A stretch of DNA of 36,404 nt from Actinomycetes bacterium (GTDB lineage Bacteria; Actinomycetota; Thermoleophilia; RBG-16-64-13): NCBI GenBank assembly GCA_021372435.1, contig JAJFUK010000086.1, positions 71,307-107,710 on the forward strand, read 5' to 3'. Under the pieces are notes generated by a model, which ran no database searches, was not told the DNA's origin, and saw nothing but the letters and a program-made list of their open reading frames with translations. The number at the start of each line of letters is the position of its first letter. Position 1 is the stretch's first letter. Both the position numbers and the translations under genes were made by a program. Shown here in pieces: positions 14,259-23,120 of the stretch.

Positions 14259-15272
14259 ATGGAAGCGCGCATCATCGGACTCAAAGGATGTGGGAAGACC
14301 ACATTGGTGGCGGCTCTGGCCGAGGGAAGGGGAGAGGGCCACATAGCCACCGTGCACGTGGGCGATCCTCGGGTGCGGACCTTATCCGAGATCTTCCAGC
14401 CCAAGAAGACGACCTTCGCGGAGTTCAAGGTCCAGGAGGTGGCTTGGCCGGAGGCCGGCGTCCGCAAAGGAGAGATGGAACGCTACCTGGATTCGCTCGC
14501 CGGCGGCCAACTGTACCTTCAGGTGTTGCGCGCGTTCCACAGTGACATCCTGGGTGAGCCGGCCCATCCGGAGAGCGACCTGGAAGAACTCGACCGGGAG
14601 TTCCTCTTGTCGGACCTCATCCGCATCGAGCGCGCGTTCGAGCGGGCCAAGAAGGCGCCGTTGCCCGAGATCGGTAGGAAGGCGCTGACTCGCTGCCGGG
14701 AGGCCTTGGAGAGCGAGGTCCCTCTTCGCGAGGTGGAGTTCGATGAAGGCCAGTCAACCTTCATCAGGGGATACCAGTTCTTGACCCTCGTCCCGCAGCT
14801 TCTACTGGTGAACACAGAGTCTGACAGCACGTGGGATCCGGCGGCATTGGGAGCGCGCGTCCGAGAGCGGCACGTCGTCGCCTTTCCGTTCCCCGATGCT
14901 CTGGAGGTGGCCCGGTTGTCCGCGGAGGAGCAGGCCGAATATGCAGTCGCTCTGGGTCTTCCTGGGCCGGCGGCCGAAGTCGTGGCTCAGGCGGCCTTCA
15001 GCCAACTAGGGCTGATAAGTTTCCTTACGACCGGCAGTGACGAGGTGCGCGCTTGGCCCATCCGGGCCGGAGAGACCGCACGCGAGGCCGCGGGTGCCGT
15101 CCACTCCGACATCCAACGCGGCTTCATCCGGGCGGAGGTGGTTGCGTTCACCGACTTCATGAGCCATGGGGCCAACATGAAGGCCTGCCGTGATGCGGGG
15201 GTGCTTCGGATCGAAGGCAAGGACTACGTAGTCGCAGACGGGGACATCATCAACTTTCGGTTCAACGTATAG
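14259..15272 (+). CDS. Divergent YchF/Obg-like ATPase paralog with TGS domain
   Basis: The protein has 337 residues (true YchF is about 363). The C-terminal third is clearly YchF: LISFLTTGSDEVRAWPIRAG, then GFIRAEVVAF, then EGKDYVVADGDIINFRFNV. The N-terminus keeps a P-loop (GLKGCGKTT, residues 7-15, for YchF GLPNVGKST) and DPRVRTLSEIFQPKK. The stretch between P-loop and DPR, which holds the G2 loop in YchF, is shorter, and the G3 block (VDIAGLVKGAS in YchF) reads VQEVAWPEAGVRKGE, without the DxxG. Nucleotide binding may persist, but normal switch function is doubtful. AGGGAGA precedes the ATG. Canonical YchF is a ribosome-associated ATPase; this copy probably has another role. It is convergent with the NUDIX gene. 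Confidence 0.85.
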   Translation: MEARIIGLKGCGKTTLVAALAEGRGEGHIATVHVGDPRVRTLSEIFQPKKTTFAEFKVQEVAWPEAGVRKGEMERYLDSLAGGQLYLQVLRAFHSDILGEPAHPESDLEELDREFLLSDLIRIERAFERAKKAPLPEIGRKALTRCREALESEVPLREVEFDEGQSTFIRGYQFLTLVPQLLLVNTESDSTWDPAALGARVRERHVVAFPFPDALEVARLSAEEQAEYAVALGLPGPAAEVVAQAAFSQLGLISFLTTGSDEVRAWPIRAGETAREAAGAVHSDIQRGFIRAEVVAFTDFMSHGANMKACRDAGVLRIEGKDYVVADGDIINFRFNV

Positions 15273-18446: not shown

Positions 18447-18550
18447 AGGGCCGGGCTCCGGGCTCCATGTAGGTGGCGGAGGTCCGTCGATATTGTTACA
18501 ATCGCCAGTTGCCGGGACGGAACCCCCGGGATCCGAACAGTAGCAGGTCG

Positions 18551-19144
18551 ATGGAGAATATTCGCCAGTTCTTCGCAACCCAGTTGCGCAGGGCCTTCAC
18601 TCCGATGCTGGCTGCCCTCCGACGGTTGAGGATAACCCCGAACGAGGTCACCATAGCCGGCACCATCCTCAACATGGTTGCGGCTGCGTTGGTCGTCGCC
18701 GATCATCTCATCTACGCGGGTATCGTCTTTCTCGTGGCCGGGTGTTTCGATATGCTTGATGGGGCCTTGGCGCGGATGGCTCAGAAGGTCACGCGGTTCG
18801 GAGCATTCCTTGACTCGACTCTCGATAGGGTTTCGGAGGGGGTCGTCCTCGCCGCCATCGCATACCTGTTGGCTGCCGAAGGGCATGCGATCGACGCGGC
18901 TTTGGTGGTGCTCGCACTCATGGGTGCTATGTTGGTAAGCTACACTCGCGCTCGTGCAGAGAGCCTCGGAGTCGAATGCAAAGTCGGGATCATGAGCCGG
19001 CCCGAGCGGGTCATCCTCATCGCCCTAGGCCTCTTCTTCGATGTGCTGCCGTATGTGATCTACATAATGCTGGCTCTGACCGTGGTCACGGTCATCCAGC
19101 GCGTCGTCCATACCTACCGCCAACTAGGCAGGCAAGAACAATAG
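18551..19144 (+). CDS. CDP-alcohol phosphatidyltransferase, probable phosphatidylinositol-phosphate synthase
   Basis: The protein has 197 residues from ATG 18551 (AGCAGG upstream). The full CDP-alcohol transferase signature is present: D-x2-DG-x2-AR-x8-G-x3-D-x3-D in [10 protein letters not shown]...[10 protein letters not shown]. The remainder is helical and hydrophobic, as expected for a six-helix membrane enzyme. In actinobacteria this enzyme condenses CDP-diacylglycerol with inositol 3-phosphate to give phosphatidylinositol phosphate. The assignment over PgsA (glycerol phosphate) rests on the next gene, inositol-phosphate synthase, which starts 10 bp after the stop and makes that substrate. 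The active site faces the cytoplasm. An -10-like TTACAAT lies in the leader near 18497. Confidence 0.85.
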
Positions 19145-19154
19145 GGAGGATTCG

Positions 19155-20240
19155 TTGAGCGACAAAGTACGGGTGGGCATCATCGGGGTAGGGAATTGTG
19201 CATCTTCCTTCATCCAAGGGGTGCATTTCTACCGCAACGCCAAGGCCGACGAGTTCGTCCCCGGCCTGATGCACGTGAACCTCGGCGGATACCACATCTC
19301 CGATATCGAGTTCACCTGCGCCTTCGACATCGACAAGACCAAGGTGGGCAGGGATCTGTCGCAGGCAATCTGGGGCGGGCGCAACTGCACGGTGAAGTTC
19401 TGCGACGTGCCCGAGATGGGGGTCAAGGTCCACCGGGGCATGACCCACGACGGCCTGGGCAAGTACCTGTCGGAGGTCATCGAGAAGGCCCCCGGCCCGA
19501 CCGACGACATCGTGGGCATCCTCAAGGACACCAAGACCGACGTGGTGGTCAACTACCTGCCGGTGGGCAGTGAGATGGCGACCAAGTGGTACGTGGAGCA
19601 GATCCTGGATGCCGGCTGTGCCCTGGTCAACTGCATCCCGGTCTTCATCGCCCGCGAGAAGTACTGGCAGGAGAGGTTCGAGGAGCGCGGGCTCCCCGTC
19701 ATCGGCGACGACATCAAGTCGCAGGTGGGCGCCACCATCGTCCACCGGGTGCTCACCAAGCTCATGCGTGACCGGGGCGTGCGCCTGGAGCGCACCTCGC
19801 AGCTCAATGTAGGCGGCAACACCGACTTCCTCAACATGTTGGAGCGCTCCCGGCTGGAGAGCAAGAAGATCTCGAAGACCAACTCGGTCACCTCGCAATT
19901 GGATTACGACATCGGCAGCAAGAACATCCATATCGGTCCGTCCGACTACGTCGAGTGGCTGGACGATCGCAAATGGGCGTACATCCGCATGGAGGGCCGC
20001 ACCTTCGGCGATGTGCCTCTCAACATCGAACTGAAGCTCGAAGTGGTCGACTCTCCTAACTCCGCCGGCATCGTCATCGACGCCGTGCGGTGTGCCAAGC
20101 TGGCGCTCGACCGCGGCATCTCGGGTGCTCTGTTCGATCCGGCCTCATATTTCATGAAATCGCCGCCCATCCAGTACGGCGACGATGAGGCTCGGCGGCG
20201 GACCGAGGCCTTCATCTCCGGTGAAGCCGCCTGCGAGTGA
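19155..20240 (+). CDS. ino1: Inositol-1-phosphate synthase (inositol-3-phosphate synthase)
   Basis: The protein has 361 residues. The TTG start at 19155 has GGGAGG 5 nt upstream; the next Met lies within the conserved part. It begins with the NAD-binding [15 protein letters not shown] and carries the synthase blocks [32 protein letters not shown] and [12 protein letters not shown], together with the Lys-rich active-site segment [10 protein letters not shown]. It converts glucose 6-phosphate to inositol phosphate through an NAD-dependent oxidation, aldol cyclisation and reduction. The length is that of the short actinobacterial and archaeal form. It shares a transcript with the PI-phosphate synthase 10 bp upstream. 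A strong hairpin follows its stop. Confidence 0.96.
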
Positions 20241-20318: not shown

Positions 20319-22373
20319 GTGGCTGCAGATCTGCACATAGCCCTGGTGACGCCGTTCTCGTGGAGCGTGCCTAGCGCCGTGAATCAACACGTCGCCGATC
20401 TGGCGTGTGAATTGAAGAACCGAGGCCACCATCCCGTCGTGGTCGTGTCGTCCGATGCGCCCGCCGATGAAAGGCGGATACGGGCGCTTTTCCACCGCTC
20501 TCGGGGCCGGGTCGTGGCCCTGCTGCGCGACTATCGCGAAGGCGCTGAGCCGGACGGACTTCTCCTCCCGCCGGCCGGCGTCGGGCCGCTCGAACGGGAA
20601 GCGGGGGTGCCCGTCGTTCCTCTGGGCTCCAGCTTCCCGGTCCGGTTGAACGGCGGGGTCGCCAATCTCGGCCTGCCGGTGGACGTGACCTCCCGGCTCG
20701 AGAAGCTCATGTTGGGCGCCGGTTTCGACCTCGTGCACGTGCACGAGCCTTTGGCGCCGTCACTCAGTTTCACCGCGCTACGAGAGACACGCAGCCCGGT
20801 GGTGGGCACCTTCCATCTCACCCCACTGGGCGTGGCGGCGTACGAGCTGGGGCAGGCGGTCTTGGATCGCTTCTTCTTGAGGCTCGATGCCCGTATCGTC
20901 ACCTTCCGGTCCGGCCGCGATATCTTGGAGGATCTATACCCTGGACGGTACGAGGTGGTTCCGTGCGGCACCGGTTTGGCGCCTGCTGTGCCGGCCACCG
21001 CCTGCCCGTCGGCTCGAACCGGCGTCGCGAAGCCGTTCGCCCTCTACGTATACCGAGGCGACGGGCGCCGTTCGCACCGTGCCTTGCTGCGGACCCTCCT
21101 GACCGCGTTCCCGACCGACCTCGATGAGGTCTCCATCGCTTACCACCGAGCGTCGGTTAAGCGTTGGGTCCCGCGCAGCATTCCCCGGAAGCTACGGGCG
21201 CAGGTGACACTCCGCGAATTCGACACCCCTGCCGATCTGACGCCCTTGTACCAGGCGGCCGCCGTTACCATCCTGCCTTTCCTCGGCGGGGAATGGCTCT
21301 GTGCCACGGCCGCCGAGGCCTCCGTCCATGGCTGCCCCGTGGTGGGGCCCGATCTCGCCCCGGTGCGTGACTTCGTCAGCGGGCCCACGCCGGGCGGGGT
21401 GTTCTCGCCGACGGAGTCTGCGTCTCTAGGTGCGGCGATCCGAAGCGTGCTGGGGCGAACGGAATCGTCGGAGTCCCGCTGTGTCGAGGCTGTGGCCGCT
21501 CCCTCCCCGGGTCCCTGTGAACACACCATCGGGGCCGTCGTCGACAAGCTCGAGCGGATCTATGGCGACACCATCGCGGCCACGAGTGGGCGCCGCGGTA
21601 TCGTGGCGAAGACTCCAGTGGCCGGCTACTCGCTTCACGTGCGCGGCATCGGGGAGATGTCCACCCGGCGGCGTATGCGCCACGCCGCCGCGGGACCGGC
21701 TCGACCCGATTGGATCAACGCCGACCTCCATGTGCATTCGAACTACTCCAAAGACTGCGCCAGTCCCGTCGAGGCGATCCTGAACACTGCCCGCGAGATC
21801 GGGCTGGGGGCTCTGGCCATCGCCGACCACAATGAGATCCAAGGCGCGTTCTTGGCCCGGGAGCTCGCCAAGGACGACCCCATCATCATAGTCGCCGAAG
21901 AGATCAAGAGCGCGGAGGGCGAGGTCATCGGACTCTTCCTGAGCAAAGCGATCCCTCCGGCCCTCAGCTTCGATGAGACCCTATCGCTCATCAAGGAACA
22001 GGGTGGGCTCGTCTACGTGCCCCATCCCTTCGACGCGTTGCGGACCACTCCCTCCTACCGCACACTCGTGGACAACCTGCACCGCATCGACGTCATCGAG
22101 ATCTACAACGCCAAGGTGGCGCTGTCCTCCTTCAATCTGAGCGCTGAGCGTTTCGCAGCCAAGTATAACGTCGTAGCCGGTGCGGGCAGTGACGCCCATG
22201 TTCTGCAGGGTCTTGGCACCGCGATCATCCGCATGCCGCGCTTCGACGACCCGCAGAGCTTCATGGCCGCTTTGTGGGAAGCCGACATCATCGCACGCCG
22301 CAGGAACCTTCTGTATCTGCAGTCTCTCAAGCTGCTGCAGACCACCCTCGACCGGGTTTTACCAGAGGATTAG
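20319..22373 (+). CDS. Glycosyltransferase (GT4-like) fused to a PHP-domain phosphoesterase
   Basis: The protein has 684 residues; the GTG at 20319 has GAGG 7 nt upstream. Residues 5-415 are a GT-B fold. LVTPFSWSVPSAVNQHV resembles the PimA/WaaG first loop (usually GGV, here SAV), FDLVHVHEPLAPS (136-148) follows, and E-x7-E is at Glu325/Glu333. The Arg/Lys donor-phosphate block is hard to find. A linker (about 420-460) leads to a complete PHP domain: His471/His473 (DLHVHSNYS), Asp503-His504 (ADHNE), Glu528, His569 (VPHPFD) and Asp625/His627 (GSDAH). PHP domains hydrolyse phosphomonoesters or phosphodiesters with two or three metals. Its position after ino1 and PI-phosphate synthase suggests work on an inositol lipid headgroup, by analogy with PimA. 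That link is inference. Confidence 0.88.
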   Translation: MAADLHIALVTPFSWSVPSAVNQHVADLACELKNRGHHPVVVVSSDAPADERRIRALFHRSRGRVVALLRDYREGAEPDGLLLPPAGVGPLEREAGVPVVPLGSSFPVRLNGGVANLGLPVDVTSRLEKLMLGAGFDLVHVHEPLAPSLSFTALRETRSPVVGTFHLTPLGVAAYELGQAVLDRFFLRLDARIVTFRSGRDILEDLYPGRYEVVPCGTGLAPAVPATACPSARTGVAKPFALYVYRGDGRRSHRALLRTLLTAFPTDLDEVSIAYHRASVKRWVPRSIPRKLRAQVTLREFDTPADLTPLYQAAAVTILPFLGGEWLCATAAEASVHGCPVVGPDLAPVRDFVSGPTPGGVFSPTESASLGAAIRSVLGRTESSESRCVEAVAAPSPGPCEHTIGAVVDKLERIYGDTIAATSGRRGIVAKTPVAGYSLHVRGIGEMSTRRRMRHAAAGPARPDWINADLHVHSNYSKDCASPVEAILNTAREIGLGALAIADHNEIQGAFLARELAKDDPIIIVAEEIKSAEGEVIGLFLSKAIPPALSFDETLSLIKEQGGLVYVPHPFDALRTTPSYRTLVDNLHRIDVIEIYNAKVALSSFNLSAERFAAKYNVVAGAGSDAHVLQGLGTAIIRMPRFDDPQSFMAALWEADIIARRRNLLYLQSLKLLQTTLDRVLPED

Positions 22374-22442: not shown

Positions 22443-23120
22443 TTGCCCTTGCAAGATGAGAGCCGGGTAAACAACTGCGAAGCCGGTGCGATCGAAATCG
22501 TGAGAGACCCATCACCCGCCCACGAAGCTAACGAGATCTACCGCAAGCTGGAAGAGCGGGCGATCGAAGAAAACAACGATCTCAACCACCGCGTGGTCCA
22601 CTGCCGTAAATGCCTGCACGGAGAGTTCCTTCCAACGGTAGGTTCTGGGCATCCACTGGCCGACATCTTCCTGCTCAAGTACCAGCCGCGGTATCTGGAA
22701 GTCACGGAAGGCGTGGCCTTCTATGGTCGCTCGGGGACCGCGGTGCTCAAGAGCATGGAACGCCTTGGCGTGAACCCCTTGGTCGTGTACGGGACGAACC
22801 TCGTGAAGTGTCACGATGTGAAAGTCGAGGAGGGTGAGAAGAACTGCCCGCCGTACTGGCTGGAGGAGTTTCACATCACGCAACCTCGCATCATCGTGGT
22901 GATGGGCAGGCCGACGCTCGACGCGGTCAACCGACAACGAGTCGCGGGGATGAAGAAGCTGGCTTGGGACCCGGGAGCTCTTCAGGACTTCACCGCTTTC
23001 TGCAAAGCGCTCGTCACGCCGGACATCGACGACTGTCTGGATGAGGAGCAGGCGAAGGGCGAGTTTTGGAAGGCGTTCAGGAACCTGGGCGAGTGGATCC
23101 GAGACCAACCGCCCTACTAA
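22443..23120 (+). CDS. Uracil-DNA glycosylase superfamily-like protein with probable 4Fe-4S site
   Basis: The frame opens at TTG 22443 just after an in-frame stop; GTG 22500 is a possible later start, and neither has a convincing ribosome site. The longest form has 225 residues. The order of blocks follows family 4/5 uracil-DNA glycosylases: Cys54-x2-Cys57, then P-T-V-G-S-G-H, FYGRSGTAVLKSME (for PFVGRAGxLLDxLL), VVYGTNLVKC (for VYITNVVKC), Cys123-x11-Cys135, and QPRIIVVMGRPTLDAV (for I.P.II..LG..A). The cysteines could ligate a cluster. The catalytic GEAPGxxE block is replaced by LLKYQPRYLEV, so uracil excision is doubtful. The partner of this gene is unclear; it may be cotranscribed with the gene upstream. 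Confidence 0.75.
   Translation: MPLQDESRVNNCEAGAIEIVRDPSPAHEANEIYRKLEERAIEENNDLNHRVVHCRKCLHGEFLPTVGSGHPLADIFLLKYQPRYLEVTEGVAFYGRSGTAVLKSMERLGVNPLVVYGTNLVKCHDVKVEEGEKNCPPYWLEEFHITQPRIIVVMGRPTLDAVNRQRVAGMKKLAWDPGALQDFTAFCKALVTPDIDDCLDEEQAKGEFWKAFRNLGEWIRDQPPY

What the first reader, a model, noticed from the sequence alone, without database searches (positions are those of the whole stretch)
20319..22373. Glycosyltransferase fused to a PHP phosphoesterase beside inositol-lipid genes
A GT4-like domain with a PimA-like first loop but altered donor-site residues is fused to a PHP domain with all metal ligands. It follows PI-phosphate synthase and ino1. The PHP half could remove the phosphate from PI-phosphate (a step still poorly assigned in actinobacteria), or act on a sugar phosphate, while the GT half adds or recognises a sugar.
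Basis: partly seen in the sequence, partly recalled or inferred. Interest (0 to 1): 0.66.

Follow-up and report, generated by a model that had tools for sequence, protein, structure and literature searches.

The report
Dead mannosyltransferase fused to inositol-lipid phosphatase
In one class of soil and sediment actinobacteria, the gene next to those that make inositol lipids encodes a worn-out sugar-adding domain joined to an intact phosphate-removing domain, a good candidate for the enzyme that finishes phosphatidylinositol and has not been identified in actinobacteria.

Summary
The fusion is real: 684 aa, a PimA-like GT4 half plus a PHP half with every metal ligand. It follows a PI-phosphate synthase (PIPS) and ino1. 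It is not a one-off. In the class (Thermoleophilia) the fusion GT halves form one clade beside PimA. All 77 genomes with a listed PHP-half hit also have PIPS; in 69 the two share a contig, at most 7.1 kb apart.

Six residues nearly constant in PimA relatives are eroded in all 52 fusions compared (0-4 of 6 kept). The donor domain evolves faster than the acceptor domain, the reverse of PimA. The GT half is therefore probably a pseudo-PimA that recognises PI/PIP or the membrane. PHP ligands are kept in 40 of 41 fusions.

Most likely the protein removes the phosphate from PIP. PgpA, the family of the Bacteroides PIP phosphatase, was found in none of 61 class genomes; no mycothiol ligase passed its cut-off; separate IMPases exist. 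Against: one family (12 genomes) keeps PIPS and the protein but has lost the PHP ligands, so either another phosphatase took over there or the ancestral role is partly scaffolding. Substrate and activity are inferred, not shown.

The parts
20319..22373 (+). GT4-PHP fusion gene (684 aa)
   Evidence: ORF and domains; class-wide homologues
20319..20969 (+). PimA-like N-terminal (acceptor-side) Rossmann domain, residues 1-217; His142-Glu143-Pro144, Phe165-His166 kept, GG loop replaced by Ser19-Ala20
   Evidence: Alignments; AF2 model matches PimA
21033..21458 (+). PimA-like C-terminal (donor-side) domain, residues 239-380, fast evolving and eroded at the donor/catalytic residues across the class; in the window Arg246, Glu325, Glu333 remain, Lys251 is Arg
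21594..21704 (+). Low-confidence linker between the two halves, residues 426-462
   Evidence: AF2 pLDDT below 50
21708..22283 (+). PHP phosphoesterase domain with all nine metal-ligand residues, residues 464-655
   Evidence: Foldseek to TM0559 and RNase AM
22284..22370 (+). Fusion-specific C-terminal tail (LxYLQSLK motif, residues 656-684), amphipathic or basic; lost where the PHP ligands are lost
18473..19144 (+). PI-phosphate / archaetidylinositol-phosphate synthase-like CDP-alcohol phosphatidyltransferase, motif DMLDGALAR...GAFLDSTLD intact
19155..20240 (+). ino1, myo-inositol-phosphate synthase
22443..23120 (+). Uracil-DNA-glycosylase-family-4-like gene that follows the fusion in most class loci; altered motif; role in the locus unknown

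Best explanation
A gene fusion that arose once in the ancestor of the class joined a PimA-type GT4 to a PHP phosphatase inside the inositol-lipid locus. The GT half has since lost mannosyl transfer (a pseudo-PimA) but keeps its acceptor-side domain. I propose that this domain docks on the cytoplasmic membrane face and recognises the inositol head group. The tethered PHP domain, with its metal centre intact, would hydrolyse the inositol phosphate of PI-phosphate made by the adjacent PIPS, giving PI. In short: Ino1 makes inositol-3-phosphate, PIPS makes PIP, the fusion makes PI. Shown computationally: fusion, synteny, single origin, GT decay, PHP integrity and constraint. Inferred: membrane and lipid recognition, and PIP as the substrate.
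For: (1) Linkage: 77 of 77 class genomes with a listed PHP-half hit have PIPS; 69 on the same contig, median gap 2.6 kb, maximum 7.1 kb; the other 8 are in fragmented assemblies, several with a hit close to a contig start. The PIPS-fusion link survives in several family-f2 loci where no ino1 lies in the fetched stretch. (2) Single origin: 52 fusion GT halves form one side of a branch, support 100/98, next to PimA relatives. (3) GT decay: of six residues nearly constant in PimA relatives, fusions keep 0-4 and none keeps six; 20 of 28 PimA relatives keep six. N-domain identity is 38% in both groups, C-domain 29% in fusions versus 40% in PimA relatives. (4) PHP: mean identity 58%, ligands complete in 40 of 41 (the other a conservative D503E), omega 0.04-0.07 in the window's family versus 0.15-0.29 for the donor domain. 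(5) The step is unassigned in actinobacteria, and PgpA, the only known bacterial PIP phosphatase family (BT_1525), was found in 0 of 61 class genomes. (6) Soluble Ins-P removal is not missing: PF00459 in 31 of 31. (7) Intact PimA relatives exist separately, and the fusion is kept where none was found, e.g. G406 and G409, so the fusion is not tied to mannosylation. (8) PI and PIM are reported for a Solirubrobacter strain.
Against: No biochemical test. In family f2 (12 genomes) the PHP ligands and C-terminal tail are lost while PIPS keeps its motif and the protein stays in place: PHP catalysis is dispensable there or replaced. The PI head-group residues suggested for PimA (motif YNGSxAR, my reading) are only partly kept in fusions. 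Stand-alone PHP relatives (about 40% identical) in other classes are not near PIPS, so the PHP family as such is not PI-specific. Guilt by association cannot tell PIP from another inositol-phosphate compound.
Confidence: 0.45

Rival explanations
1. Scaffold or regulator of PI synthesis. The constant role of the protein is binding: holding PIPS, lipid and partners together; PHP hydrolysis is an added function in most families and was lost in f2.
For: Family f2 keeps the protein, between PIPS and the UDG-like gene, with both halves lacking catalytic residues; it is still under purifying selection (mostly omega 0.08-0.23), the N-domain most constrained in most pairs.
Against: Outside f2 the PHP half is by far the best conserved part, with ligands complete in 40/41 and omega 0.04-0.07 in the window's family, which a pure scaffold would not need.
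Confidence: 0.2
2. PHP half acts on a different inositol- or lipid-linked phosphate: free inositol phosphate, phosphatidylglycerophosphate, a glycerophosphoinositol diester or a sugar phosphate.
For: PHP domains do mono- and diester hydrolysis on varied substrates; nearest solved folds are TM0559, RNase AM and 3'-nucleotidase-type proteins; PgpA is absent, so the class's PGP phosphatase is also unassigned.
Against: Locus linkage is to PIPS, not to PG genes; separate IMPase-family genes exist in 31/31; fused to a PimA-type lipid-head-group domain.
Confidence: 0.22
3. Bifunctional enzyme: the PHP half makes PI and the GT half still mannosylates it to PIM1, as the first reader half suggests.
For: Window copy keeps Arg246, Glu325 and Glu333 and has a conservative Lys251Arg; its own genome lacks a clear separate PimA.
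Against: GG loop lost (Ser-Ala); none of 52 fusions keeps all six residues; the donor domain is the fastest-evolving part; most other class genomes, including several in the same family, carry a separate intact PimA relative.
Confidence: 0.07
4. MshA-MshA2 fusion of mycothiol synthesis (GlcNAc-Ins-P made, then dephosphorylated).
For: ino1 matches the mycothiol INO1 model, though under its cut-off (545 of 638 bits); MshA is a GT4 and its phosphatase is unidentified (own knowledge).
Against: MshC never passes its cut-off in 61 class genomes; the roughly one strong sub-threshold hit per genome looks like cysteinyl-tRNA synthetase, since the model also rings in all 14 controls. GT half is nearest PimA, with the donor site lost.
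Confidence: 0.02

Closest known systems
PimA (phosphatidylinositol mannosyltransferase, GT4)
   Same: Best sequence and fold match of the GT half; sister clade; PimA relatives also sit next to PIPS in other lineages; acceptor-side HEP and FH motifs kept
   Different: Donor/catalytic residues eroded, donor domain fast evolving, fused to PHP
BT_1525 PIP phosphatase of Bacteroides thetaiotaomicron (PgpA family)
   Same: Same proposed reaction (PIP to PI) and same setting beside PIPS and MIPS genes (PMC9246714)
   Different: Unrelated protein family; PgpA found in none of 61 class genomes
PHP phosphoesterases TM0559 (2anu), RNase AM, 3',5'-nucleoside bisphosphate phosphatase
   Same: PHP fold and metal-ligand set
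   Different: About 20% identity, stand-alone or other contexts, no lipid-enzyme partner domain
CehA/McbA family metallohydrolase (NF038032)
   Same: Best NCBIfam match of the PHP half (61 bits)
   Different: Below the curated cut-off of 80

Membership tests
PHP phosphoesterase superfamily | Match above curated score to PHP models | tested here: met
   PF02811 35.7 bits (cut-off 26.4), PF13263 36.4 (21.3)
PHP phosphoesterase superfamily | Complete metal-ligand residue set | tested here: met
   Nine residues present in window; complete in 40/41 fusions, not in family f2
Active PimA mannosyltransferase | Gly-Gly donor loop | tested here: not met
   Ser19-Ala20 in window; GG in 28/28 PimA relatives
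Active PimA mannosyltransferase | Catalytic Arg/Lys and E(x7)E of GT4 | tested here: inconclusive
   Window keeps Arg246, Glu325, Glu333 and has Arg251 for Lys; most other fusion lineages lack more
Active PimA mannosyltransferase | PI mannosylation with GDP-mannose | not testable with these tools
   Needs enzyme assay
PI-phosphate phosphatase (functional class) | Hydrolysis of PIP to PI | not testable with these tools
   Needs assay or lipid analysis
PI-phosphate phosphatase (functional class) | Genetic linkage to PIPS/MIPS | tested here: met
   69 of 77 genomes on same contig within 7.1 kb
BT_1525-type (PgpA) PIP phosphatase | PgpA domain PF04608 | tested here: not met
   Not found in P0001 nor in 61 class genomes
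MshA / mycothiol pathway | Pathway-specific MshC in the genome | tested here: not met
   0 of 61 over cut-off
CehA/McbA metallohydrolase | NF038032 score of 80 bits | tested here: not met
   61 bits

The most novel reading that the evidence does not exclude
A pseudo-glycosyltransferase has been turned into a lipid-head-group reader that guides a PHP phosphatase to PI-phosphate. This would be the PIP phosphatase of an actinobacterial class, from a fold not known to act on lipids, with one lineage that later discarded the catalysis and kept the scaffold.
Probability: 0.4. Interest if true: 0.78.

Novelty: new variant of a known kind. Interest (0 to 1): 0.64.

Why it matters
PI is the root of PIMs and related glycolipids in actinobacteria, yet the phosphatase that makes PI from PIP was described as unidentified in the structural papers on PIPS (PMC4634129, PMC6506517), and the Bacteroides answer (PgpA type) does not apply here. 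This finding names one protein, its active-site residues and a simple reconstitution test. It also offers a clear case of a glycosyltransferase whose donor half decayed while its acceptor half stayed constrained.

Tried and rejected
Mycothiol MshA-phosphatase fusion: rejected because MshC never passes its cut-off. PgpA as rival phosphatase: not found in 61 genomes. A missing inositol monophosphatase as the reason for the PHP half: IMPase-family genes in 31/31. Stand-alone PHP relatives beside PIPS in other classes as independent support: looked for in about 18 loci and not found; identified neighbours include LytR-CpsA-Psr, purine-synthesis, TldD and kinase/radical-SAM genes. Intact GT4 relatives as part of a second PIPS-PatA-PimA operon in the class: the neighbours read are not PIPS. 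Full-length AF2 model gives low confidence in the C-terminal third, so no conclusion is drawn on how the two active sites face each other. Paper searches for a described GT-PHP fusion or a PHP PIP phosphatase found none.

Full report
Observation. The window holds one open frame at 20319-22373 (+), 684 aa. Pfam gives GT4 domains in the first 380 or so residues and PHP plus PHP_C in the last 220. The closest solved sequences are the two PimA structures, and Foldseek of the AF2 model also ranks PimA first. The PHP half alone, modelled from 14 sequences, matches TM0559 and the RNase AM PHP domain. Upstream lie a CDP-alcohol phosphatidyltransferase at 18473-19144, whose best models are archaetidylinositol-phosphate and phosphatidylinositol-phosphate synthase (just under both cut-offs), and ino1 at 19155-20240.

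Distribution and linkage. The named hits from GTDB genomes with both halves are all Actinomycetota, several titled Thermoleophilia or Patulibacter; Patulibacter belongs to Thermoleophilia. A same-class genome (L122) has the identical C-terminal tail to the Patulibacter locus. I therefore take the class to be Thermoleophilia. Among 396 genomes of the phylum, GT and PHP halves in one frame appeared only in the window's class, judged from the listed rows. In the class, 98 of 99 genomes match the fusion query and 98 of 99 have PIPS. Of 77 genomes with a listed PHP-half hit, all have PIPS and 69 have both on one contig, median 2.6 kb and at most 7.1 kb apart; the other 8 are in fragmented assemblies, several with a hit near a contig start. 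The usual order is PIPS, ino1, fusion, UDG-like gene. In several f2 loci no ino1 lies in the fetched stretch, but PIPS and fusion remain neighbours.

GT half. All 52 fusion GT halves fall on one side of a well supported branch (100/98), next to PimA relatives, so the fusion is best explained by one origin. The PimA set Gly19-Gly20, Arg246, Lys251, Glu325, Glu333 (window numbering) is complete in 20 of 28 PimA relatives and in none of the 52 fusions, which keep 0-4. The window's own family is among the less eroded: it keeps Arg246 and both Glu, but has Ser-Ala for Gly-Gly and Arg for Lys. At the same N-domain identity (38%), the donor domain is 29% identical among fusions but 40% among PimA relatives. 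Acceptor-side motifs (HEP...P, FH) stay almost constant. This is what one expects if lipid or head-group binding is kept and sugar transfer is lost; the binding itself is inference. Separate intact PimA relatives occur in most class genomes, but no clear one was found in the window's genome, G406 or G409, which keep the fusion. A gap in assembly could explain the window's genome (96% complete).

PHP half. The nine ligand-type residues are complete in 40 of 41 fusions outside family f2, and the remaining one has Asp503Glu. Mean pairwise identity is 58%, against 39% and 30% for the two GT domains. In the window's family omega is 0.04-0.07 for PHP, about 0.09-0.12 for the N-domain and 0.15-0.29 for the donor domain. 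These omega values are approximate because synonymous sites are near saturation. A C-terminal tail with the motif LxY(L/V)xxLK is specific to the fused form and absent from stand-alone relatives; in many lineages it is basic, in the window it is amphipathic.

Function. Bacterial PI is made from inositol phosphate through PIP, and the phosphatase was described as unidentified until BT_1525, a PgpA-type protein, was found in Bacteroides. PgpA was found in none of 61 class genomes. IMPase-family genes are present in 31 of 31, so removal of phosphate from free inositol phosphate need not fall to the PHP half. Mycothiol synthesis is unlikely because MshC never passes its cut-off. A Solirubrobacter strain is reported to contain PI and PIM, so a member of the class makes PI. 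The best explanation is that the fused PHP domain is the PIP phosphatase, guided by a pseudo-PimA. I put this at 0.45; that the GT half has lost normal PimA catalysis across the class I would put near 0.85.

The main difficulty is family f2. In 12 genomes the protein sits in the same place and is still under purifying selection, but PHP ligands and tail are gone, while PIPS keeps its catalytic motif. Either another phosphatase took over, or f2 stops at PIP, or the protein also has a non-catalytic role which is the older constant. Lipid analysis of an f2 member would decide.

Comparison with the known. It is a member of the PHP superfamily (features met). It is PimA-derived but fails the donor-loop feature of PimA, and so should not be filed as PimA. 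It would work like BT_1525 but is not a PgpA. I found no description of a GT4-PHP fusion or a PHP-type PIP phosphatase in the paper library searched, which holds open-licence papers only.

Noticed in passing
L083, L084, L108-L117 (family f2): The fusion is kept in place but lacks catalytic residues in both halves: a doubly dead protein under purifying selection.
   Followed up: partly
window 22443-23120: A family-4 UDG-like gene follows the fusion in most class loci. The usual UDG motif region is replaced (KYQPRYLEVTEGVAFYGRSG), and the cluster-type cysteines are missing in several lineages. It may have a different function.
   Followed up: partly
61 class genomes: No PgpA was found, so the phosphatidylglycerophosphate phosphatase of the class is also unassigned.
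   Followed up: no
L085 7732-8430 (G000 contig C5): A second, stand-alone PHP protein (34% identical) lies beside a radical-SAM gene and a PASTA-type protein kinase; similar copies occur in other genomes of the family.
   Followed up: no
L017-L020: Chloroflexota (SAR202/Dehalococcoidia) have the order ino1 - intact PimA relative - PIPS without a PHP domain: a possible picture of the state before fusion.
   Followed up: no
L120 4665-4994: A second, truncated ino1 copy (C-terminal 110 residues, 74% identical) lies between ino1 and the fusion in G111.
   Followed up: no
window 14259-15272: YchF-like gene scoring well under the curated YchF cut-off (171 of 279 bits), retained near the locus in several relatives; perhaps a diverged paralogue.
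   Followed up: no
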